A stretch of DNA of 64,000 nt, taken from Narthecium ossifragum. Its lineage: Eukaryota > Streptophyta > Magnoliopsida > Dioscoreales > Nartheciaceae. Positions 3,239 through 63,028 of this stretch are shown here, one piece after another. The notes beneath the pieces are model-generated. The model searched no databases and was not told the DNA's origin. It saw nothing but the letters and a program-made list of their open reading frames with translations. How positions within the stretch are numbered: position 1 is the first letter of the stretch; every line of letters starts with the position of its first letter. The stretch is from the NCBI GenBank assembly GCA_963920575.1, contig OY986972.1, positions 1,257,501 to 1,321,500 on the forward strand, read 5' to 3'. A program made the translations under genes and the position numbers.

Positions 3239-3782
3239 TCTCTCTCTCTCTTCCTACGTCAGCAAACCAAGGAACAGTCAAAATACCAAAAGCCAGTCAA
3301 AATTAGTCTCTCTCTCTCCCTCCTACGTAAGCAAATGAAGGAAACCGGTCAAAATATGAAATCCGGTCAAAATTGATGGAAACAAAAAGAATGGGGGGCA
3401 ATTAAGTAATTCTACTTGCCCGGGTAACGTTTAAACTATGGTTAGGTTAGATATGTGGACGGTGGTTGACGGAGGGGTAGGTTTACGGATTGTTCAAAAT
3501 TTGAAGGGTATTTTAGTAAGCCGGAAAAATATAGGGGTAATTGTGATATTTCGAAACTTTTGAAGGATAGATATGTAAAAAGCCCTTTTTAATATTGCTC
3601 TTTAGACAAGCATATAATTAAACTGTAGACTTACTTAAATCTGTGAGAATTTATCCTATAAGCCAATTTTAAGAGACATATATATATATAGCATAGCAAT
3701 CTCAGCAGCTGGCCAAAAATTAATCTTTTCCTCTTTTTATAGATAACCTAAAGGCAGCAGAGTCAACTAAAACAGGTCAGGA

Positions 3783-4775
3783 TCATACATATGAAGCTGC
3801 ATCAATGTGAGCAGCAACTGGAACATATGCAAACTCAGCACCTATATTGGTCTCTTCTTCTCCATGGCTCTTCTTACACTCATAGTAGAACACTACGTTG
3901 GCTGCCAAGATGAACAAGCTAAACAGCACGCTGATCACAACGTCAACGACCCCCAACGCCACGACAGCCACCGGAAAGGGTTGAGAGCGAGCGTAGACGA
4001 CACCATAGGCCACGGAGAGCGCCATGGGGACGGTCATCGTAAGAAGAGTGATCGAAAGCCCCTGCCAGTTTCTCCCTCTGATCAGCTCCGTGGCCTTTGC
4101 GATCGCGAGCAGGCCATAGCAAGCCGCGTCGGCCTCCACGACCGCGACCACCGTGCTCAGCAGAAAGACCGTGAACAAGTAGAGAAGGATGAGAATTTCC
4201 AGGAAGAAGAGGAGAGCCAGCAGAGCGAGCAGAGCCAGGGCGCGGCCGAAGAAGAAGATGAACAAGAAGAGCACGAAAGAGAAAGCTAAGAGGAACGTGG
4301 AAACCACGATGAAGATGAAGAAGTAGAACAAAGTGATGAAAGGCCCCTTGGACGAGGTTTTGATCCTAGAGATGAGATCGTTCAGGGAGAGGTGCTTGCC
4401 GGAGTAGGTCATGGCGGCGAAGTAGACTGTGGCGGTGGTCAAGAGCGAGGAGACGACGAAGGTGACTTCGAGAAGGATTGTTTCGATGCCGATGAGCTGA
4501 CGAAGGACGGTTCTTATGCCGGAGACGAGGTCGTCGTGCACGGGGCTAAACGGCGCGGCGGACGTGATCAGGGCTAGGGAATTGGAGAAGAGGGTGGCGA
4601 TAAGAGAGGAGGTGGAGAGGTAGGAGGTGAGGTAGATGATGGAGGAGGAGAGGAGGGAGAGGCAGAAGAGGGGGCGGAGGACGCCCTGGTTCTTCGTTAG
4701 TGTCTTGAGGGCTTCTTTGAGGATTTCTCAGGTGCTGAGAGGCTTGCCGCCAGCTGAGTTGGCCATGGCCGCCAT
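3783..4775 (-). pseudogene. multi-pass membrane protein gene with premature stop
   Basis: One uninterrupted exon of 331 codons reads from an ATG at 4775 to the stop at 3783, except that codon 16 (4730-4728) is TGA. Both sides are in the same frame: MAAMANSAGGKPLST, then EILKEALKTL and onward. The protein is very hydrophobic, with about six membrane segments (residues about 35-60, 98-120, 145-170, 173-195, 225-250, 272-298) and ends in FYYECKKSHGEE plus a short tail. The C-terminal motif, a KATELIRGRNWQG loop and the general layout match the gene at 12375-13184, so they are relatives. I think it belongs to a plant family of uncharacterised polytopic membrane proteins; function is unknown. A one-base change (TGA from a sense codon) or an assembly error would explain the stop; the rest shows no decay. 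The next Met in frame (MTYSGK) would remove the first two membrane segments. Confidence 0.75.
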
Positions 4776-12374: not shown

Positions 12375-13184
12375 TTAGTCACCCTTTGCATTTGCTGAAC
12401 GTTTTCCTTTGCAGTAGTTTTTCTTGCACTCATAATAAAACCAACTACACACAAAATACACAACAAACTTGATTCCCAGATGAACCAGGAGCACCAACAG
12501 AGCTTCCAAACTCCGGTCGCAGCCGCCGCCGCCCTTCTTGTTGCCGATCACCACCGATGGCACTTGCTCTAGTAGCATCAACGCCGCCCCAAGAACGAAG
12601 CCCTGATGATTCTTTCCCTTGGTGAGCTCCCTTGCCCTCTCTAGTGCACCCATCCCTTGCAGTTGCTGGCGATCCTCCGCCACCGCCACCACCAGGCTCA
12701 TCTTGCAAGCCATGTCCGAGTAGGCGAACAACTCCGGCCAAATTCTCAAGAGCACGGCGATCAAGCAGAGAAGCAACAAGACCTCCAGCGGAGACACACT
12801 CGCCGCCTTCGCAGCAAAGGCGCTGGGTATCTGGAGAAGCGAGGAGAAGGCTGTGACAAAGAGTTCGACATGGAGCAGCGTCATCGCCAGCCGTCTAAAT
12901 GTTCGCCGGATTAATACACTCATCCGCTGCTCGTCATGCTTCAGGCACTTACCGGCGTAGACGACGGTCGACAGGTAGGCCATGATCATCGCCGAGAGCC
13001 TCGAGGCGACGAAGCTAACCGGCTTCAAATCCATCCGGCGCCCCAAGAGAGATAATAAGGAGAGGTTGCATGAGATGAGCACGGCGAGCATGGCCGCCGT
13101 CGAGACTGGCGGCTTCTTGGCATGGCTCTGGTAGTGGATGCAGAGTTCCGCCGGCAAGATGCGGTCATCGCCGGCAGCGGACAT
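12375..13184 (-). CDS. multi-pass membrane protein, relative of the 3783-4775 gene
   Basis: A single-exon frame of 269 aa from the ATG at 13184 (MSAAGDDRILPAE). Two codons upstream is only TTG-GCC, so the ATG is the sensible start. It is a hydrophobic polytopic protein with about five to six membrane segments (residues about 30-52, 60-84, 103-128, 134-155, 197-215, 228-250). It ends FYYECKKNYCKGK and carries ERARELTKGKNHQG, matching FYYECKK and KATELIRGRNWQG in the gene at 3783-4775; both lie on the minus strand about 8 kb apart. The N-terminal half is much more diverged, and a Gly-run (NKKGGGG) interrupts the last loop. Probably a diverged tandem paralogue of an uncharacterised plant membrane protein family. 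The flanking transposon-derived DNA leaves open whether it is expressed. Function unknown. Confidence 0.6.
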   Translation of the reverse strand: MSAAGDDRILPAELCIHYQSHAKKPPVSTAAMLAVLISCNLSLLSLLGRRMDLKPVSFVASRLSAMIMAYLSTVVYAGKCLKHDEQRMSVLIRRTFRRLAMTLLHVELFVTAFSSLLQIPSAFAAKAASVSPLEVLLLLCLIAVLLRIWPELFAYSDMACKMSLVVAVAEDRQQLQGMGALERARELTKGKNHQGFVLGAALMLLEQVPSVVIGNKKGGGGCDRSLEALLVLLVHLGIKFVVYFVCSWFYYECKKNYCKGKRSANAKGD

Positions 13185-13399
13185 GGCCAACTATACTAGG
13201 GATGTGCATTGGCCTGGGCTAGAGTCATAGGACTATAGGAGTGATAACGGTGTGGAATGAGTCAAACGATGGGTGCTGTTGGTTGGGTGCAATTAAGGGG
13301 TTGACTTCTAGCCTTGTTAGACCAAGAAAAGTCAATGGTCGCTTGGGACGGCGGGGCGGTCAATGGAATGAATTATGTTTTGGGTACACGGGCAGCTGG

Positions 13400-21170: not shown

Positions 21171-22154
21171 CTAAGTACCATCAAGGAAAGAGCATAATAC
21201 ATCACTGACCATTCTCTCCCTCTGTGGAAGCATGTCGAGTTCATCCCTCGAAGGTGAACTATCATTCCTCTTGATTCTTGCATGTGACCTCTTAAGAAAA
21301 AGCTTTGCTATCTGCAATTGGGTCTTTGCTATAATCTCTGTCTTCTTAAGTTCCATCTCCCCCCGCTTGATCTCTGCTTCGGCTCTCATCCTCTCCGATT
21401 CCTTGTACATCTCCATCCTCGCTTGCTCGATCTTCAAGATCGAATGAGCCAGCAATCTAATGCTCTCCGCTACCTCACTTCCCGACCCCTTCCTCCTCTT
21501 ACAAGGATTATCTGTTGTCCTTACCCCGTTACCAACATTGGCCACTTTGCTTCTCGGCGCACTAACATCACTATCTGCATCTCTGCTCTCCTTCTTCTCC
21601 TTGTTATTGTCATTGTTCACATTGGCATTGGCATTGGCATTGACATTGACATTGACATCAATGGGCAATGTGTTTGATCCATCGTCTGGATTGCTATCTT
21701 GCAATCGTCCATCCATTTCCACTTCGACCTCCACCTTTGGCTGTGATTGGAGATTGATATTGTTATCGGACTTCAGATGTGCACTGGCATTCGTGGTTCC
21801 TTTCAACAAGTTATCCATACAGGCATAGAATTGCCACGAGGAGCACGAGGCAGGGTGCTGGGTGATTGCCGACTCTGCCCGGTACCGCTTCTTCATCGAT
21901 TCGATCTTGTTCTTGCATTGGCTTGGCGTCTTGAGGTTCTTGGTACCGGAAAACCGTATGGACACTTGGCGCGCGATATCCTCCCAATCACTCCCCTTAA
22001 GCTTGGCACGGTTCCGGAGTACCCACTTGGCCTCATACACCTCTAAAAGGCTCAAAACACCACCTTCACTCCACTCATCCCTCCGGCTTTTATCCGGCGG
22101 CTTCACAGCCGGCAAAGGGGGGTCCGGGACTCCACCACCTTGGGCACCGTCCAT
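21171..22154 (-). CDS. trihelix (SIP1-type) transcription factor
   Basis: An intronless 327-aa protein. Residues about 24-112 are a trihelix Myb/SANT-like DNA-binding domain: DEWSEGGVLSLLEVYEAKW (helix 1 with the first conserved Trp), GSDWEDIARQVSIRF (helix 2, second Trp), and CKNKIESMKKRYRAE (helix 3), followed by SSWQFYACMDNLL. A disordered acidic middle contains an Asn-Val-Asn-Ala repeat (about 166-185) encoded by a hexanucleotide array, then a basic CKRRKG patch. Residues about 222-285 form a charged coiled coil (RMEMYKESERMRAEAEIKRGEME). This layout matches the SIP1/ASIL clade, nuclear proteins that bind GT-type promoter elements; ASIL1 represses embryo genes in Arabidopsis. The exact orthologue is not determined. 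The start has good context and the upstream region is AT-rich. Confidence 0.92.
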   Translation of the reverse strand: MDGAQGGGVPDPPLPAVKPPDKSRRDEWSEGGVLSLLEVYEAKWVLRNRAKLKGSDWEDIARQVSIRFSGTKNLKTPSQCKNKIESMKKRYRAESAITQHPASCSSWQFYACMDNLLKGTTNASAHLKSDNNINLQSQPKVEVEVEMDGRLQDSNPDDGSNTLPIDVNVNVNANANANVNNDNNKEKKESRDADSDVSAPRSKVANVGNGVRTTDNPCKRRKGSGSEVAESIRLLAHSILKIEQARMEMYKESERMRAEAEIKRGEMELKKTEIIAKTQLQIAKLFLKRSHARIKRNDSSPSRDELDMLPQRERMVSDVLCSFLDGT

Positions 22155-24238: not shown

Positions 24239-25531
24239 TTAAGCAGTTTCTCTGCTTCCCACTATCCAATTCAGTGTCCTTGTTGCAAATGAAGGTGTTT
24301 TTTCTGCTTGAGATCCTATACTAGTATCACAACTCCCCGCCTCCAAATCCGAAACCAATACACTACTACTTCCACTCTTCTGCAACCCTTCTATGGCGAA
24401 CTCCGATCCATCATCCGATCCTCGACGCAATGGCAATCGAAAGGAGGAGGCCCTCCTCGGACAATCTCCGATAGCCGCCGACTTCTCCTTCTTCGACCGA
24501 AGCCAAATCTTCGAAACAGAGTAGCTATCTCTCTTCTGCAAATGCCGACCAATGCCATCACTTCCATGACCACAATCCGCTCTGGGTTCTGAGCTCATCC
24601 ATGGATACATCCCCTTGAAATCATCTCTCCTCGAATGGCAATCGCATTCGGACATCGCAAGCCGGTACCCAGGTCTCACAATTCCATTCTTCTTCTTTGG
24701 AGTTCTAATGGCTACTTGAAGAGCAGAAGCTTCATCCATTACGTACTCAAATGATCCCATGGAGAAGCACCTCCTCTCACTCGAATTGCCATGTTGATCA
24801 CCACTAGAGTTCTCCACACTTTTAAACTTTCCAAGCTTGATAGGAACCACCTTCGCCGCCGGATCCTCCATTGCCGGCGAGCCCATGTCCTCATCATCAG
24901 CGAGAAAACCCGAACGAGGGCTGATAACAGAGCCACCATTGTCGACCCCAATCTCCATAGATCTCTCATTCCTAGACTCCAGAACAAGAGCCAGAGGATT
25001 CCAGGCGGTTCCCGGAGAGAAGCCATGGATTAAGCTCCGCCGGCAAAGAGGGCAGTTGGAGTGGGACAAGAGCCAGGTATCTATGCATGAAACATGGAAG
25101 GCATGGCTGCAGGTGGGCAGCAACCTCAGCTTGTCATCAGCCTCAAACTCACAGAGACAAACAGCGCAATCAAATGGATCCTTGAGGCCTATGATGGCTC
25201 TGTAGAGGAAGATCGGAAGGGTGTCGATGAAGGACTGGTCGACTCCGGCGTCGTCGAGTTGGAACAGCTCCTGGAGCCGGCTTTGCATGGCGGTGGCGCT
25301 GTCGGAGTCCTCTGTGCTACTTCTCCTGGATCTCATGACGTGTCTAATGAGCAAATGGAGAAGTCCGGCGACGAAGAAGATGACTGCTAGGATGACTATT
25401 ATGAGGAGAATGCTTGGGCTAATCTTGCTATTCAGATATTCTGGAAGAGCTGGTGGTGGCGGCGGCGGTGGAAGGGAGTAGGCCTTGCTTGTAGTGATGT
25501 TTAGGAGTACCCAAGCCATGTTTGGATCCAA
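24239..25531 (-). CDS. RING-H2 E3 ubiquitin ligase, ATL13-like
   Basis: An intronless 430-aa protein typical of the ATL family. It has a proline-rich N-terminus (21-30), one membrane helix at about 40-64, the GLD-type motif GVDQSFIDTLPIFLY (96-110), and a RING-H2 domain at 122-163 (CAVC, then CSHAFHVSC, then CPLC), which keeps the family's Pro before the third Cys pair and the DTWLLSHSNCP segment. The long C-terminal tail has conserved short blocks (GKFKSVENS, RRCFSMGSFEYV, SVSKIWLRSKKEKS) as in the ATL13/ATL43 subgroup. ATLs are membrane-anchored E3 ligases that recruit an E2 through the RING; substrates are unknown here. The Met start directly precedes the hydrophobic/proline leader. The stop lies 1.3 kb downstream with no frame break. 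Confidence 0.94.
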   Translation of the reverse strand: MDPNMAWVLLNITTSKAYSLPPPPPPPALPEYLNSKISPSILLIIVILAVIFFVAGLLHLLIRHVMRSRRSSTEDSDSATAMQSRLQELFQLDDAGVDQSFIDTLPIFLYRAIIGLKDPFDCAVCLCEFEADDKLRLLPTCSHAFHVSCIDTWLLSHSNCPLCRRSLIHGFSPGTAWNPLALVLESRNERSMEIGVDNGGSVISPRSGFLADDEDMGSPAMEDPAAKVVPIKLGKFKSVENSSGDQHGNSSERRCFSMGSFEYVMDEASALQVAIRTPKKKNGIVRPGYRLAMSECDCHSRRDDFKGMYPWMSSEPRADCGHGSDGIGRHLQKRDSYSVSKIWLRSKKEKSAAIGDCPRRASSFRLPLRRGSDDGSEFAIEGLQKSGSSSVLVSDLEAGSCDTSIGSQAEKTPSFATRTLNWIVGSRETA

Positions 25532-26599
25532 AGCACCACCAGATCTAAAGGGACGTTAATGGCATGCAGGGGTTGTTGGGTGAAATCTTAGGAAAGCCCA
25601 AGATCTCAAATCTAAAGAAGTGTTCTTTAAATTTTCAGAGAGGTCCAAAGGGCTTAAGATTCAATGTAAATGGAGTAAATGGTTTTGGAGTCAAGGCTAT
25701 TTTTGCAAAGCTATTGTGTGGATCTCTAGGAAATAATAGCAGCAGATCCGATATGGAACCAATGGAAGCATTGATTTGGTGTTGAGTCATTGTTTCTTTC
25801 TATCTCATTACTTTTTTTTACTCCAACAGTCAAATTTGTTACATTAGATGAGGTCATGTGAAATTTCTGAGTTGGAATACTTTGGGATTGGAACTTCTTG
25901 ATGACATGCATATATAAAAATGGTGTCCTCAGTGGTAGAACTTTGTGAATGACAAGAAAATTGATGTAGATCAGAGATGTAGTGATTCTAAAATCTCACA
26001 CCTTGTGTCATTAAACACTTCACCATGTGAAAACAGTATGAAAAACTAATAACAACATAGATCATGAGCAGTATTGATGGTACTCTTCATTATGCCTTAA
26101 TACATGTCAGCATTCAATGTTGAGAGAGAGAGAGAGAGAGAGTCTTCAGTCTTCACAGAATTTGAACCTGACCCAACCACATCAATCGGCTGAGTGGTTC
26201 GATTCTGAAATCAAACTTGATCGTTTAGTTCCTATTGACTTTTCTTATCAGGAAAGTTACACGTTTCCCACCTTAGGTACGCGAGCTGGAACTAAAGTTT
26301 TCCTTGAAAGATCATGCATGGAAATGGTGTTCATGGCTGACAACAAAAGGCTATATAAATCTATCAGTCAAAACAGTCAACTATTCGTAGGTGGTCATCA
26401 CAGTACCATCCACTCCCCCCTTCTCTCTTCTCTCTCAGCTTAAGAAAGCCATTGAAACATTTGTAAGCACATAAACAGAATTGAAAGAAAACAATTGATC
26501 CATAAGAAAAACGCTGTTCTCTAAAGTATTTTCTTAATGATGCAATAGCAGCTTACAGGGAGAGATAGAAGAAAAATAAAAAGTCATACATATGTTACA
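25532..26599. other. ATL13-like promoter side and TAS3 3' side
   Basis: 5' flank of the ATL13-like gene and 3' flank of the TAS3 transcript. It contains a (GA)n tract at 26121-26142. No coding exon is recognised; the TAS3 transcript may extend into its right part. Confidence 0.35.
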
Positions 26600-27095
26600 A
26601 TCTCGTCATCTACAATCACAAAATTTAAATCGGTCTACTTGTGCAAACAATGCACTTCTATTAATGGACTTTCAACCAAGCTCCGGAGGGATAGATCGGG
26701 AGAAGAAAGATGGGAGGATTGACATGAGTGAAGAAGAGAATTTGAGATAAGAACGGAATAGAGGGCGGCCATGCAAGTAATTTTTGGATTCAAAAGTCTT
26801 GCAAGGTCAAGAAAAAGATTAAGAATGAAAAGAGAGACATAGAAGAGAAAGAAGAGCAGAAGGTAAGCTCAGCAAGGATAGCACCAACTACAGCTCAGCT
26901 CGGTAGAGGGAAGTCCCTGGACCTTCCATCTCCTCTTCTTGTAGCTTCCCCCCAAAATGACAGCGTCAAAGGCTCCCGGCATCTCAAGCAGCACTCAGAA
27001 GATGGATCAAAGAGCATGCTCGCCTGAACCTCTACACTATGGATCTCTCCAAACAAAGATACCCTCATAAATGGCAACGAGAGGTCCAAGCTGAA
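26600..27095 (-). ncRNA. TAS3: TAS3 trans-acting siRNA precursor (tasiARF)
   Basis: Minus-strand transcript with all TAS3 hallmarks. The 5' miR390 site is at 26865-26885: the complement matches miR390 at 18 of 21 positions, with a mismatch at nt 9 and a G:U at nt 11, so poor for cleavage. The 3' miR390 site is at 26678-26698, with miR390 nt 8-17 perfectly paired, so cleavable. Between them at 26793-26813 lies a tasiARF beginning TTCTTGACCTTGCAAG. Cutting the 3' site between miR390 nt 10 and 11 (26688/26687) and counting 21-nt steps upstream gives a sixth window of 26793-26813, exactly the tasiARF. Established role: AGO7-miR390 triggers RDR6/DCL4 processing, and tasiARF silences ARF2/3/4 in leaf polarity and phase change. 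A TATA box is at 27118-27128. Transcript ends are estimates. Confidence 0.93.
26895..27068 (-). CDS. TAS3 upstream ORF (57 codons)
   Basis: The first ATG after the inferred TAS3 transcription start (27068; MRVSLFGEIHSVEV) opens a 57-aa frame that stops at 26895. Only 9 nt separate the stop from the 5' edge of the 5' miR390 site (26885). Arabidopsis TAS3a likewise has a short ORF ending a few nucleotides before its 5' miR390 site, and ribosomes stall there against AGO7-miR390. The peptide itself resembles nothing I know, and its sequence is probably unimportant. The placement supports the TAS3 call and suggests the same translation-coupled siRNA control. Confidence 0.7.
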   Translation of the reverse strand: MRVSLFGEIHSVEVQASMLFDPSSECCLRCREPLTLSFWGEATRRGDGRSRDFPLPS

Positions 27096-27117
27096 GGGTT
27101 AGAGAGGAAGAGGGTCC

Positions 27118-27128
27118 TCCTTATATAG
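27118..27128 (-). promoter_or_regulatory. TATA box of TAS3
   Basis: The minus strand reads CTATATAAGGAGG here. A start about 25-30 bp downstream (about 27095) would give a roughly 27-nt leader before the first ATG at 27068. Confidence 0.6.
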
Positions 27129-52225: not shown

Positions 52226-55200
52226 TCACTTCCATCCGGTGTAGGCATTGTCCCGCCTGTTGTTCCTGAAAGCGCAGCAACCAACAGAGTAGACGATGAC
52301 GAGGAAGACGAGGAAGATGATGTTGACGATCGCAACCTTCTTCCAGTCGTCCTTGATGTTGGCAAGGACACCTGCCTTGCAAGACTGGCAATCATAGCAT
52401 AAGATGCTCTGATCATTCTGCCAGGTGTTGCAGTCGGAGATGTTGGAAGTATAGCCCGGAGGTTTGTCCCAGACAGTTTCATTCATGTAGGTCAAGCTGC
52501 ATGCTGTTGGCGGCTTGCAGCATCCAGACTTCAAGAAAGCAGCAGACGGACAAGAAGAGCAATGGTGAGTAAAAATCCGAGCAGTCCAGACTAAAAACAG
52601 CTTAAATGACCATGTAAATTTTATGAGATTTAGTAAGACAAACCAGCAGCCCTGCATAAAAAACTTGAAAATTTTGATTATGCAATGCAGCCACAAAAAC
52701 AGGAACAAAGAAAGTTTCCATAGACAATATGGCACAATTAACAATGAAGAATAATTGAAGCACCAACAATGTAAGGTCAACTGGAGGCAGATCGACAGAA
52801 CAAGCTATAGTCAGATAGTCAGTGTGAAGTTTAATATCCACCTTGTAAGCTGTCATGACAGCTGTGGAGCCAAACACTGCAGAAATTAAGAAGAAACAAG
52901 TAGCTAGTGGTCCCTAATTGGCCCATTTTCTTGCTTATAAGAAGTCGCCAGGGAAAGAGTTCACGAGAAAAGTATAAATACAGTACAAAAAAGGGAACAA
53001 ATACCAAAAGCATTTGCAAAAGTTCCAAGTTCCAACTAAATGAGTTTAAAAATGCAAAAAATGGAAATGACCTCTATGCAATTTTTCTAAAGGATCTACC
53101 AGAGCACATTTTTCTTGAATTACGACAAAGAAGGGTGGCTCTCAAAGAAAGCAGAAGAAGGCATGGACCGTGTACGTTGCAATCAAATTCACAAGCAAGG
53201 ATTGACGGTATAGAGTATATTATGCCCAACATTAAGAAATTGCCGACAACTAAAGGTTCTTTTAATTATATCCTAAGGCTTAAAGTATGCGACTAAACTA
53301 CAAAAATCTCTAGTCAAATATATAACATCAAAATCCAAAACCAGGTTTCAGAAAAATTATCTCGGTGCTACTAAAGAAAAGAGCTCATACTGATACAAAA
53401 TAATATTTAGAGAGCAGGCCCTGCATATCTACAAAGAAGTTAAAGTATATAGCCTATTCAATAGCTACTAATCTCCAACGCCAATCAGGCATCTAAATAC
53501 ACCATGCCAAAACTTTCAACTTGGACCGCTGCTAAACAACTCATAACCGAATTTGAAGTCACTGAAAAATGGTTCCACGACCTTTTCTCCTTATCTATCT
53601 AACATCAATGAATAGAAGCTGCGGCTATAAAGAATGATTCACAATCTTCAAATGCAGAATAGAATCCATTAGCCTAAAACAGAATTGGATGATGCAAAGT
53701 TGGAACAAAATGATAGAGCCAAAACACATCAACATTCAAACATTAAAGTATCTTCCAACATCAGTGAATATATGGGGGAAAAAACACAGAATATGAGCAT
53801 TCCTTCAAATTAGCGCAACTTATCAAGAAAATTCTACTCACACATAGGCAACATCAATAACAAAAAAAAAACTAAACCAACCCTGAAATTCCAATGTACG
53901 TAGATATAGTTAAAATTGAAGATCAACCAATGCAGAGAAAAAGGTCGAAGTACAAATACTATGAGAATAACTCCAACCAATGTAGAAAACTACAAGAATA
54001 CTGAAATCTCCAAGGAAGAAAAGTAAGAGCTCTTGAGGGAAAAAAATCAATCAATCCCTAAAAAACTTATCTGCCACCAGATTATAAATAAATCTACGAC
54101 CAATGAAGCGAGTATCTTCCTAAGACAAGAAGAAATCGACACAACTATAAATAAAAACCCAGTGTGAACAAAAGAGAAAAACTAGATCTCATCAAGAATA
54201 TTTATCCTAACAAATTTTCTAGAATACTAGAGAAATACGGCCAAACTAAGATTTTCTCTTCTTCGAATACTAGATTTTGCCAGACGAAGAACTAACACAG
54301 ACAAAAACAACATAATCCAACCAAGAAAACCAGCAGAGTTAGGGGATAGATCGATCCTTTCAACAAGAAAACCGACAGAATTCCTAGTGGAACTCGAATA
54401 GTCTTAAACCAAGATCCCATAACCAAGAAAACCAACAGAGTTAGGGGAAATCCAAACCCAAACATGAAAAGATTACAAGAACTCCGCCCTCAAACTCAAC
54501 AGTTCTTGTCCAAAAAAGCGAAATCGCTAATAAAACAGATCTCAATCATGGGGAAAGATCATATTTCTCTTAACCACAAAGAAACTCGAAATACTTCAAC
54601 AAGAAACAGATCCCACTCTGAGAAACCCATCAATGTGCACACAAGAACCAAACCATCAAAAACCTAGATCTCAAAAAAGACTTAGATTTCAAACAGAAAA
54701 CTCAAACCCACTTCCAAGAAAGTCATCATCGATTCCGACCCCAAACCACAAAAAATCACCAAAAGATTAGATTTTCAAGAACGACCAATACCTGGATAGG
54801 CGAGAGGTTATTATTGATGAACTGGGCCTCCGACTGGTTGCCCTCCTGCAAACTCTGGCACACCTTGGAATCCAGCAAACAACTCCTAATCTTCCCCCAA
54901 TTCTTCTGATCATTAACCCTCTTCTGGAGCCAATTCGAGTAGTCTCCCAATCTATACTCCTTATACCCTCTCCCAGAGACCACCTCTCCGGCCCCCTTAT
55001 TAGTGATGACGAACGCAAACACGGTGAAGCAAAAGAGGAGCACGATGAGCAGGAACATGACGAGGAGGTAGACCCACAGGAGCCACGTCACGCGGCAGCA
55101 AGCGCCGACGAGCCCGGCGAGGGAGACCACCATCAAGAACACCCCGAGGGCGATGACGGGCCCCTCCAGGAACTTCTCGCAGTCGGTGTGCGCCCGGTGC

Positions 55201-55298
55201 GCGAGCCATATCCCGCCCCCCAGTATCGGGATCGACAGGAGGAAGGTCACGAAGTTGAGCACCCCTACCAGGTTGTTGCTTAGACGGAACATCGCCAT
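52226..55298 (-). CDS. tetraspanin (TET8/TET9-like)
   Basis: Two exons, 55298-54792 and 52528-52226, separated by a 2.26-kb intron (GTATTG...TGAAG), giving 269 aa. It has a classic plant tetraspanin layout: membrane helices at about 8-32, 46-68, 73-98 and 233-254, a short loop with HTDCEKFLEGP, and a large extracellular loop (about 100-232). The loop contains the plant-specific GCCKPP motif at 171-176, right at the exon junction, and further cysteines in SDCNTWQNDQSILCYDCQSC. The tail is CCAFRNNRRDNAY. Tetraspanins organise membrane microdomains; Arabidopsis TET8 marks exosomes and both TET8 and TET9 act in defence. A TATA box lies at 55378-55386. The first exon is strongly GC-rich, the intron AT-rich. 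The start is the first ATG after the TATA box. Confidence 0.95.
52529..54791 (-). other. tetraspanin intron (2.26 kb)
   Basis: AT-rich and A-rich on the plus strand. I see no exon, RNA gene or transposon end inside it. The splice sites fit the plant consensus and are placed by the conserved position before the SGCC motif. Confidence 0.6.
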
Positions 55299-55377
55299 CG
55301 ATTCCCCTCTCCGGCGATCCCAACGACGCCAAGAAGAGAGAGAAAGAAGAGATAGAGGAGAAGAGGGAGTGGGTGGT

Positions 55378-59876: not shown

Positions 59877-61761
59877 ACCACCACCATCGCCGGCCATCTA
59901 AATCAATCTCACTCCAGCATATGTGTACGTCTCTACTTTTATCTCAACCATGCATCCATCATCAACTTCCACAAACAATTTAAATGATCAGGGCTATTAT
60001 ATATGTCTAAGATTTACTGCGTACATATGTTTGCCCGGAACCAGAACCCGCGGCCGTGCCGCCAAGAATCGCAGCCCTGCTGCCGGACTAAGAACCCGGC
60101 GGGTGGCGCTGCCAAAAATCGCAGCCCTTGCCGCTTCAGTTATAGCTGTTAGGGAACTCCCTAGGAGTACAACGAGAAGAGCACTGCGGGCGGACATGAT
60201 AGTATGTATTCTTCTCATTCTTCACTAGATCTCCTAAGATGATTCTAAAGGTCTAGTGGATGAGTGCAATGGCTCTCTATCTTATGACTATAGCCTGGGC
60301 CCTGGGAACGCTCTAAGATTGTAATGGGAAATTATATGATATTATAAAAAATGTAGGATATTGAAATATGAAATTTAGTAAGTTTTCAAAGTGAAATAAT
60401 ATGATGTATTGTTAGTAACCTCTAACCACCCGTTGTCCCTAACAAATGGTACCGTCTTTCGGCGAACAAAACAATTGTGATGGTTCAGGGATGTGCGTTC
60501 TCCAACCTTCTCGAAAAATGAGCAAAGGTGCTAAGGTCATGAAAAGAAATGAGACAAAAATGAGTTAATTGCGAATGAACATAAGTAATTTGCTCCGACG
60601 GCACTGAAGTCGGCTCCGTTGAAAAGATAAGCTAATTTATTATTTTTTGAGACATCACCGATGACGGTTCTTACAAACTTACTTACTTGCAAATTGGTGC
60701 GAGTAAATTTTACAGACACGTAGGGCGGACCTGAGATACAAGGGTGCATGGTGGACATGCGAAAGACCTAAATCTAAGATACAAATAACAGTGGCTAAAC
60801 CCACTGACACAAGAGTCTTATTTTGGTTTCTAGATTGCGAGAGATCTTCATTGTTGTATCCTTTGGGCTTTTATATTGTTCTGTTTCTCTAGCGGTTAGC
60901 ATCGATTCCATTGACAATTGTCCCATCGTGCCTTGCAGTTGAATTGCTAATCGGTTACATTAACTGATCCTGTTCTTAGTTGGGAATATTGGGCTTTCCT
61001 TTTCGTGGCTTCATTTTTTACCATTACTTACTTTCGTGTGGCTTCATTATTTGCTTATCTTGTATCTGCACTTCTAAACCATGCATGAATATTAATTCTA
61101 AATCCATAATAGCAGATAAAGAAAAAAAACAAAAGGTAGATTTGACCAATATATATTAAATTTTACCTCCCTGGATTAACATATTTCATTAAATAAAGTA
61201 TTATCTTAATATATATGTACAAAGAGTATTAGCAATATAATATATTTGGTGGGCCGGGGACAACCCGCTTCGCCCATGCCCGACCGGGCTGAGCTTTGTC
61301 ACGATGGTGGGCCGCTCACGACGTGCTCGGGCGGCCCCGTACAATTTGACACCTCTAGCCATGGTTGCATGAGCTACTCATAGGCATGAAACCCTTGTCG
61401 TAACACAACGTGAGCATGTGATAGGATTCCCATAAGCAGTATTGAGTCAAATCCATGTCAAGTTATTCAATTGGTCATCTTAGTCCACCTAATGTATTGG
61501 ACCTATGCATATGTCTTAAGCCATGATAACATTCTATAATTTCTGCGAACCTTTGCCACCTCTCCTTATTGGTAATTCTTATTATAAAAAACAATCCTAT
61601 ATTGCAACTGTTCTATTACGGCGGTTATAGAAATCGTTGCAATTAATGAGATGGGATACCGCAAGGTTCTGTCGAAAGATTGTAATCCAGCTGACCTTTT
61701 CTAACTAGTTCCCCTACTATCTCTCACAATATCTGCTCAAAGATCTCATTCGTTATCAACA

Positions 61762-61763
<2 letters not shown>
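59877..61763. other. intergenic DNA
   Basis: 60035-60200 is GC-rich with two copies of GCC(A/G)(A/C)(A/G)AATCGCAGCCCT and no recognisable protein. 61245-61370 carries GGGCCGGGG and GGGCGGCCCCGTACAATTTGACACCTCTAG, which resembles the inverted end of a hAT element (GACACCTCTAG), with the other end not found. The rest is AT-rich. Confidence 0.4.

Positions 61764-61833
<70 letters not shown>
61764..61833 (+). repeat. (CT)35 microsatellite before a tetraspanin gene
   Basis: An almost pure CT run of about 70 bp ending 70 bp upstream of the ATG at 61904, in or next to the 5' UTR. Confidence 0.95.
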
Positions 61834-61836
<3 letters not shown>

Positions 61837-61903
61837 TTCGTTATACTTCCTAAATACCAACTTCACTCTTGTTAGTACTACAGTTGATCATATACTAAAA
61901 ACT

Positions 61904-63028
61904 ATGGCAGCCATGGCATCCAAGCTGCCAGAGGTTACTAAATATCCTCTCATGGCTCCTCCCAAGCTAAAGAAGCTCATTGGCCCCCTGACCGTCCTCA
62001 CCTATCTCGTCTCCATCCCGGCCCTCGCCGTCGGCGTATGGCTGCTCTACATCCGGGAGGACGACTGCGAGCACCTCCTCCGCATGCCGCGCATGCGCGT
62101 CTGGATCGGTGTCGCCCTCATAGTCCTCTTCGTCGTCAGCAACGCCCTCGCCTTCTATGGCCGGAAGCTCGCCATGCCGGGCATGCTCGCCCTCATGGCG
62201 CCGCTCGTGGCCATGCTCCTCCTGGGGCTCGCCCTTGTCGGCGCGTACAAGATGGAGAGCCGCGCCGTGCCGGCCTCGCCTGTGTGGCTGCAGCGGCGAG
62301 TGAGCCAAAGTGCGATCTGGAACGACATCAAGACGTGTGTGTTTGACTCTAAGGTGTGCTCGGATTTGGCGTTCCGGACGATCGAGCTCACCTCGTATGA
62401 TTTCAGCATGATCAAGTTGTCGCCGATCGAGGTGAGCCATGCTGATCTTACGTGAAATATTTCTCATGCAAATATAAGCATTATATCTTAATTTTTTTGT
62501 TTTTGCATGCATTTGGAGTTTAATTAGGGCAGTAGCTCATCTTCGGGTTTATATTTGGCTCAAGATTGACTCCTTCGTCTATATAAATACTTAACACAAG
62601 CCTAAATTGATGATTCTATTTAGGCTCGGCTCAAATAGTTTAACTTTCTCTTCTGACATGCATATATAAGTAGTCTAAGAGTTTTGTTTTTCTTTTTTTT
62701 GGAAATGTTTCAATCCAAGTCTGGCTGCTGCAAACCTCCTGATCTCTGCGGGATGAGATACGTGAACGCAACCTACTGGATTCCGGCGAGCAAAGGCGGG
62801 GGGAAGAGCGATGATCGGGCTGCAAAGTATGCCTCCTTCAGAGACTGCAAGGATTGGAGCAATGAGTGCAAAGAGCTCTGCTACGACTGCATTGCGTGCA
62901 AATTAGGCTTCGTGGAGGCCGTACACCGCCGCTGGGGTCAGCTCGGCGTCTTCTTGATCTTGATGGCCGTGTTCTTCTCACTGGCTCATGCAGCCCGCCT
63001 CGCCGTCACCTACCAGCACCATGTCTGA
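61904..63028 (+). CDS. tetraspanin, second gene
   Basis: Two exons, 61904-62431 and 62720-63028 (donor GAG/GTGAGC, acceptor CCAAG/TCTGG), giving 278 aa. Membrane helices lie at about 25-47, 66-86, 92-115 and 248-270. The large loop carries GCCKPPDLCGMRYVN (178-192) and the cysteine cluster DCKDWSNECKELCYDCIACK. The intron falls at the same place as in the tetraspanin at 52226-55298: after the LSPI(Q/E) codon, before SGCCKPP, phase 0. The two therefore descend from one ancestor, but they are strongly diverged outside these motifs. The extended N-terminus (MAAMASKLPEVTKYPLMAPP) and a Gly/Lys-rich insertion (SKGGGKSDDRAAK) are specific to this copy. The first exon is very GC-rich. A second ATG at codon 4 is an alternative start. 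The partner proteins are unknown. Confidence 0.93.

What the first reader, a model, noticed from the sequence alone, without database searches (positions are those of the whole stretch)
26600..27128. Complete TAS3 locus with an exactly phased tasiARF
Two miR390 complementary sites (26865-26885 and 26678-26698) flank one tasiARF at 26793-26813. Cleavage at the 3' site puts 21-nt window six exactly on 26793-26813. The 5' site has a mismatch and a wobble around the slicing position, while the 3' site has a perfect central block, matching the known 'two-hit, one-cut' design. A protein search alone would miss this gene.
Basis: partly seen in the sequence, partly recalled or inferred. Interest (0 to 1): 0.85.

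Follow-up and report, generated by a model that had tools for sequence, protein, structure and literature searches.

The report
Short TAS3 gene with one tasiARF
This is an ordinary but complete copy of a plant gene (TAS3) whose RNA is cut into small RNAs that switch off auxin-response genes; the same genome also holds its partners and targets, so the reading is sound but not new.

Summary
The minus strand carries two miR390 sites (26885-26865, 26698-26678) around one tasiARF (26813-26793) that fills 21-nt window six of the 3'-site register, far above chance. The host genome supplies the partners: one MIR390 hairpin with the exact 21-mer, at least two more TAS3 loci (a duplicate on C5, a two-tasiARF TAS3L on C4) and three ARF genes with four tasiARF sites scoring 0.5-1.5. 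Both short copies keep a gap-free 94-nt tasiARF-to-3'-site spacer (56 of 94 identical) while their 5' spacers differ by 45 nt, which favours the 3' cut as phase setter. Corrections: the 3' site has a seed mismatch (position 7), and position 10 of the 5' site is paired, as in the one-tasiARF subfamily, so non-cleavage there is not shown. The first ATG after the TATA box opens a 57-aa ORF stopping 9 nt before the 5' site; TAS3L is alike (43 aa, 10 nt), the C5 copy is not. No small-RNA reads were available. New member of a known kind.

The parts
27122..27127 (-). TATA box (TATATA) of the TAS3 transcript; start site expected near 27097 (inferred)
   Evidence: 242 nt before the 5' site. TAS3L on C4 has one 229 nt before its 5' site.
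26895..27068 (-). 57-aa leader ORF, first ATG after the TATA box, stop codon ending 9 nt before the 5' miR390 site
   Evidence: Shuffles of the leader: the first-ATG ORF ends 0-15 nt upstream in 521-565 of 20000, depending on run and assumed start site. No candidate protein relative.
26865..26885 (-). 5' miR390 site; mismatch at position 9, G:U at 11 and 19, position 10 paired
   Evidence: the C5 paralogue has the same with one more G:U.
26688..26874 (-). 187-nt region between the two predicted cut positions, expected source of the 21-nt siRNAs
   Evidence: geometry only; no reads available.
26793..26813 (-). tasiARF, TTCTTGACCTTGCAAGACTTT, window D6 of the 3'-site register
26678..26698 (-). 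3' miR390 site; cut predicted between 26688 and 26687; positions 8-17 perfect, mismatch at 7

Best explanation
A one-tasiARF (short) TAS3 gene of a monocot, transcribed on the minus strand. AGO7 loaded with miR390 binds both sites. It cuts at the 3' site, and SGS3/RDR6 copies the 5' fragment. DCL4 dices the duplex from the cut end in 21-nt steps, and the sixth sense product is the tasiARF, which guides cleavage of three ARF mRNAs of the same genome. Ribosomes translating the 57-aa leader ORF probably stop against the AGO7-miR390 complex at the 5' site, as described for Arabidopsis TAS3. Shown here: the sites, the register, the conserved 3' spacing, the MIR390 gene, the ARF sites and the ORF geometry. 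Inferred from established knowledge of the pathway: transcription, cutting, dicing, AGO7 binding and ribosome behaviour.
For: Sites and tasiARF well above chance. Exact miR390 21-mer once in 379 Mb, no other place within two mismatches, in a hairpin with z -7.44; Rfam MIR390 matches at 61-62 bits, E 2e-12 to 3e-12, but below the family's cut-off of 77. Duplicate on C5 with the same kind of site defects and the same D6 placement; spacer 56 of 94 identical with no gap, against 22-34 of 94 at twelve other shifts, and 14 of 60 just beyond the 3' site. ATL13-type neighbours in the same orientation downstream of both, about 1.3 kb here and 33 kb on C5. ARF sites: two in the C6 gene (score 0.5 each), one each in C3 and C7 genes (1.5 each); ARF ancillary-domain exons over the cut-off at all three loci. 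Agreement with the apple short TAS3-2 family: one tasiARF, about 190 nt between sites, no position-10 mismatch, 3' site predicted to set the phase (PMC3446319, passages). Maize degradome: 3' site cut at all nine TAS3 loci (PMC4263373, passages). In most angiosperms TAS3 siRNAs come from the 5' fragment, diced from its 3' end (PMC8860578, passages).
Against: No expression, small-RNA or degradome data. The 3' site scores 5 with a seed mismatch at position 7, weaker than prediction cut-offs of about 4 that I recall; the C5 copy scores 6 with the same position mismatched. TAS3L's 3' site also scores 5, but its mismatches are at the ends. The 5' site is the better match of the two, so it could be the one that is cut. 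The leader-ORF layout is absent in the C5 copy.
Confidence: 0.92

Rival explanations
1. Both miR390 sites are cut and siRNAs arise from both ends; the 5' site contributes to, or sets, the phase.
For: Position 10 of the 5' site is paired and the 5' site is the better match. One-tasiARF genes are suspected of 5' cleavage (PMC3835848), and both sites are cleavable in moss and pine (PMC5902766, passages). The cut-to-cut distance of 187 nt is 9 x 21 minus 2, which would let dicing from both blunt ends meet in one register (inference). The tasiARF lies within 2 nt of the 5'-site register in both short copies.
Against: The tasiARF is 2 nt off the 5'-site register here and 1 nt off in the C5 copy, but exactly on the 3'-site register in both; the 5' spacers differ by 45 nt while the 3' spacers are equal. 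The mismatch at 9 and wobble at 11 flank the cut.
Confidence: 0.2
2. A decayed or silent TAS3 copy, left from a duplication, with TAS3L doing the work.
For: A second short copy and a TAS3L exist. Maize tas3f and tas3h make few siRNAs (PMC4263373). Imperfect 3' site.
Against: The stretch beyond the 3' site has diverged (14 of 60 identical) while the tasiARF (20 of 21), 5' site (20 of 21), 3' site (18 of 21) and spacer length are kept, which suggests selection. The tasiARF pairs with both sites of the C6 ARF gene with one G:U only.
Confidence: 0.06
3. Chance resemblance of unrelated sequence.
For: Six viral contigs contain the 18-mer core, presumably by chance.
Against: None of those six, in the stretches held, has a miR390 site of score 6 or less, whereas here two sites, the tasiARF, a paralogue and the partners all agree.
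Confidence: 0.005

Closest known systems
Short one-tasiARF TAS3 family (apple MdTAS3-2; TAS3S in some papers)
   Same: Two miR390 sites, one tasiARF, about 190 nt between sites (187 here), no mismatch at position 10 of the 5' site, 3' site predicted to set the phase (PMC3446319, passages).
   Different: Apple TAS3-2 is described with a constant 5' and a divergent 3' flank. Between the two short copies of this genome the 3' spacer length is the constant one (94 nt) and the 5' one varies (51 against 96 nt between site and tasiARF).
Maize tas3d-i (TAS3 loci of a monocot with 0-1 tasiR-ARF)
   Same: Two miR390 sites, 3' site cut, phase counted from the 3' site; five of the six have one tasiR-ARF (PMC4263373, passages).
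   Different: No reads here; sequences were not compared, as the maize loci were not available.
Arabidopsis TAS3a / two-tasiARF TAS3L
   Same: Same pathway. The TAS3L of this genome has the position-10 mismatch and a leader ORF ending 10 nt before the 5' site.
   Different: The window gene has one tasiARF and a paired position 10 in the 5' site.

Membership tests
TAS3 | Two miR390-complementary sites in the same orientation flanking the siRNA region | tested here: met
   Scores 3.5 and 5, best two of the window.
TAS3 | At least one tasiARF between the sites | tested here: met
   26813-26793.
TAS3 | tasiARF in the 21-nt register of a cut site | tested here: met
   D6 of the 3' site, remainder 0, here and in the C5 copy. 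TAS3L has remainder 1 with the same start convention.
TAS3 | miR390 and ARF targets in the same genome | tested here: met
TAS3 | Phased 21-nt siRNAs dependent on AGO7, RDR6 and DCL4 | not testable with these tools
   No small-RNA data held; the protein machinery was not searched for.
One-tasiARF (short) TAS3 | Single tasiARF, about 190 nt between sites | tested here: met
   One tasiARF, 187 nt between cuts. The C5 copy has 232 nt.
One-tasiARF (short) TAS3 | No mismatch at position 10 of the 5' site | tested here: met
   Position 10 paired here and in the C5 copy; mismatched in TAS3L.
One-tasiARF (short) TAS3 | Constant 5' and divergent 3' flanking region, as described for apple and other plants | tested here: inconclusive
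   Only two copies of one genome. The 3' sites are the more degenerate (5 and 6 against 3.5 and 4), but the 3' spacer length is the constant one.
Two-tasiARF TAS3 (Arabidopsis TAS3a type) | Tandem tasiARFs and a position-10 mismatch in the 5' site | tested here: not met
   One tasiARF, position 10 paired.

The most novel reading that the evidence does not exclude
In this genome TAS3S-a (the window) and TAS3L place the stop codon of the first leader ORF at nearly the same distance (9 and 10 nt) before the 5' miR390 site, while the duplicate TAS3S-b lacks that layout. If the spacing is selected for parking a terminating ribosome against AGO7-miR390, the pair TAS3S-a/TAS3S-b is a natural experiment on whether the leader ORF matters for TAS3 output, and TAS3S-a may in addition be cut at both sites.
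Probability: 0.25. Interest if true: 0.35.

Novelty: new member of a known kind. Interest (0 to 1): 0.18.

Why it matters
[quoted passage not shown] The value here is modest: the gene is placed with its pathway in one genome (one MIR390 found, at least three TAS3, three ARF targets), and two duplicated copies show by comparison that the distance from tasiARF to the 3' site is the one that has been kept. The leader-ORF spacing gives a testable link to the ribosome-stalling model outside Arabidopsis.

Tried and rejected
Rfam on the whole window and on L008, L012, L013 and L014 gave nothing over the curated cut-offs; with the E-value setting MIR390 appears in L013 at 62 bits. The 57-aa leader ORF has no candidate relative among about 5.8 billion proteins, so the peptide sequence is probably not what matters; short peptides are poorly covered by that word-based search. 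tasiARF core in viral contigs: six hits, no miR390 site of score 6 or less in the stretches held, taken as chance. The near-match on C3:656400 (L015/L043, score 3.5) is not counted as a target: two ORFs around it have no Pfam match and no ARF ancillary-domain match of the genome lies near it. No ATL13 or trihelix match lies in the 10 kb around the C5 copy; the ATL13 paralogue is 33 kb away. Literature searches for the 18-mer core found no paper; the 15-mer core gave 13. Xia 2017, Iwakawa 2021 and Hou 2016 are not held; what I know of them is recalled. Passages of PMC6572396, PMC5907777, PMC6786999 and PMC2694355 were also seen and carry no weight above.

Full report
What was claimed.

Check of the sequence. 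On the minus strand the 5' site 26885-26865 pairs with miR390 with score 3.5 (mismatch 1, G:U 0.5, doubled at positions 2-13): mismatch at 9, G:U at 11 and 19. The 3' site 26698-26678 scores 5: mismatches at 7, 18, 19 and 21, with positions 8-17 perfect. The tasiARF TTCTTGACCTTGCAAGACTTT lies at 26813-26793, exactly D6 from a cut at 26688|26687. These are the two best miR390 sites on both strands of the window; the third best scores 8. In a first-order Markov simulation of 19.96 million positions, none scored 4 or less and 2 scored 5 or less. The tasiARF pattern with up to three mismatches occurs once, against 0.01 in shuffles. As a control, six viral contigs with the 18-mer core have no miR390 site of score 6 or less in the stretches held.

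How strong is the phasing? The in-phase tasiARFs of longan start one base later (UCUUGACC; PMC4680215, passages), as does a barley small RNA with ARF3 degradome tags (PMC5586051, passage); N. benthamiana reads include both starts (PMC12274081, passages). In this genome's own TAS3L the exact register also gives UCUUGACC. With two acceptable starts, phasing alone is about a 2-in-21 event. The paralogue comparison below is stronger.

The genome (G000, 379 Mb, 150 contigs). The exact miR390 21-mer occurs once, on C3, and no other place lies within two mismatches. Its surroundings fold to -72.5 kcal/mol, z -7.44, 0 of 200 shuffles as good, and match Rfam MIR390 at 62 and 61.3 bits (two strands), below the curated 77. 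The tasiARF core with up to 2 mismatches gives 65 places, against 35 for the reversed control; 30 of the 65 were cut out as loci. I examined 29 of these (L009 repeats L008) within about 400 nt; the other 35 places, all with two mismatches, were not examined. Three of the 29 had two miR390 sites of score 7 or less, flanking the tasiARF: the window, C5:2638855 and C4:28461066. The C4 locus has two tandem tasiARFs and the position-10 mismatch in its 5' site: a classical TAS3L. The C5 locus has one tasiARF, with 5' site score 4.0 and 3' site score 6.0, and the same kind of defects (mismatch at 9 and G:U at 11 in the 5' site; mismatch at 7 in the 3' site). It is the only other DNA match to the window locus at E 0.001 or better. 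The best match in the genome to the window's ATL13-type RING gene, other than itself, lies 33 kb downstream of it on the same strand, as the window's own ATL13 gene lies about 1.3 kb downstream of its TAS3. This points to a segmental or whole-genome duplicate (inference).

What the duplicate shows. From tasiARF to 3' site both copies have exactly 94 nt, with 56 of 94 bases identical and no gap; twelve other shifts give 22-34. Beyond the 3' site only 14 of 60 are identical. The tasiARF is D6 with remainder 0 in both. The distance from 5' site to tasiARF differs by 45 nt and leaves the tasiARF 2 nt and 1 nt off the 5'-site register. So the distance to the 3' site is what has been kept, which fits dicing from the 3' cut. 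For short TAS3 genes of apple the printed account also predicts that the 3' site sets the phase, although it describes the 5' flank as the constant one (PMC3446319, passages).

Targets. Scored against the window tasiARF, the C6 gene has two sites 234 bp apart (0.5 each, one G:U), and the C3:2807256 and C7:925912 genes one each (1.5). ARF ancillary-domain exons over the Pfam cut-off lie about 0.9 kb (C3), 0.4 kb (C7) and 5 kb (C6) from the sites; on C6 and C3 an AUX/IAA-domain exon lies on the other side. That the distant C6 exon belongs to the same gene is inferred. The genome-wide search found 28 ancillary-domain matches, which I group by eye into 16 loci, these three among them. The site on C3:656400 (score 3.5) has no such exon near it and is dropped.

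Leader ORF. A TATA box at 27127-27122 is followed by a first ATG at 27068, opening 57 codons; the stop ends 9 nt before the 5' site. In shuffled leaders the first-ATG ORF ends 0-15 nt before the site in 521-565 of 20000, four runs; any ORF at all ends there in 3358-3725 of 20000, so the weight rests on its being the first. In TAS3L the first ATG after the TATA box opens 43 codons ending 10 nt before the site (shuffles 904 of 20000). In TAS3S-b the layout is absent: the first-ATG ORF from an assumed start ends 56 nt away, and another ORF runs into the site. So the layout is seen in 2 of 3 loci. In Arabidopsis, the ribosome-covered short ORFs of TAS RNAs end at the miRNA site, and AGO7 stalls ribosomes on TAS3 (PMC5207768, passages). 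Against a role in siRNA output: deleting the TAS3a ribosome-binding region lowered transcript level but not ta-siRNA level (PMC12127299, passages), so the ORF may serve RNA stability.

Which kind of TAS3. One tasiARF, 187 nt between cuts and a paired position 10 place it in the one-tasiARF subfamily (PMC3835848, section 9 part 1; PMC3446319). In that subfamily the 5' site may be cleavable, so 'one-cut' is open here. In maize the 3' site is cut at all nine TAS3 loci, including those with one tasiR-ARF (PMC4263373, passages).

Host. Among named proteins the neighbouring ATL13 protein is nearest to palms (56%), with Typha and taro close behind (55%), so the plant is probably a monocot outside the grasses (inference).

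Verdict. A genuine, probably working short TAS3 gene; known kind, new member. Missing: any reads.

Noticed in passing
G000, e.g. L055, L057, L058, L062-L064, L066, L069-L071: A dispersed repeat carries a miR390-site-like 21-mer (TGTAGTATCCCTGCTGAGCTT and variants, score 4.5-5.5, mismatch at position 9 as in the TAS3S 5' site). By eye roughly 60 of the places listed (101 in all; reversed control 7) are of this type. Of ten copies compared, the nine others align to L055 over hundreds of bases at 79-89%. Could bind AGO7-miR390 if transcribed; not tested.
   Followed up: partly
C5:2638737-2638989 (L014, L044): Second short TAS3 copy with a longer 5' spacer, no leader ORF ending at the 5' site, and an ORF running into the site and stopping inside it.
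   Followed up: partly
window 26352-26357, + strand: A TATA-like box on the opposite strand points towards the 3' end of the TAS3 transcript; possible convergent promoter or chance.
   Followed up: no
window 52226-52804 and 54756-55376 (-); 61709-62455 (+): The second ORF matches Pfam Tetraspanin above its cut-off and the first below it; the third looks tetraspanin-like by eye but has no Pfam match.
   Followed up: no
window 3783-4727 and 12375-13190 (-): Two long ORFs of similar membrane-protein character, without Pfam match, sharing a YYECKK motif near the C-terminus (by eye); perhaps paralogues.
   Followed up: no
window 24239-25531 and 21171-22154 (-): ATL13-type RING-H2 gene directly downstream of TAS3, and a trihelix/Myb-like gene beyond it.
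   Followed up: partly
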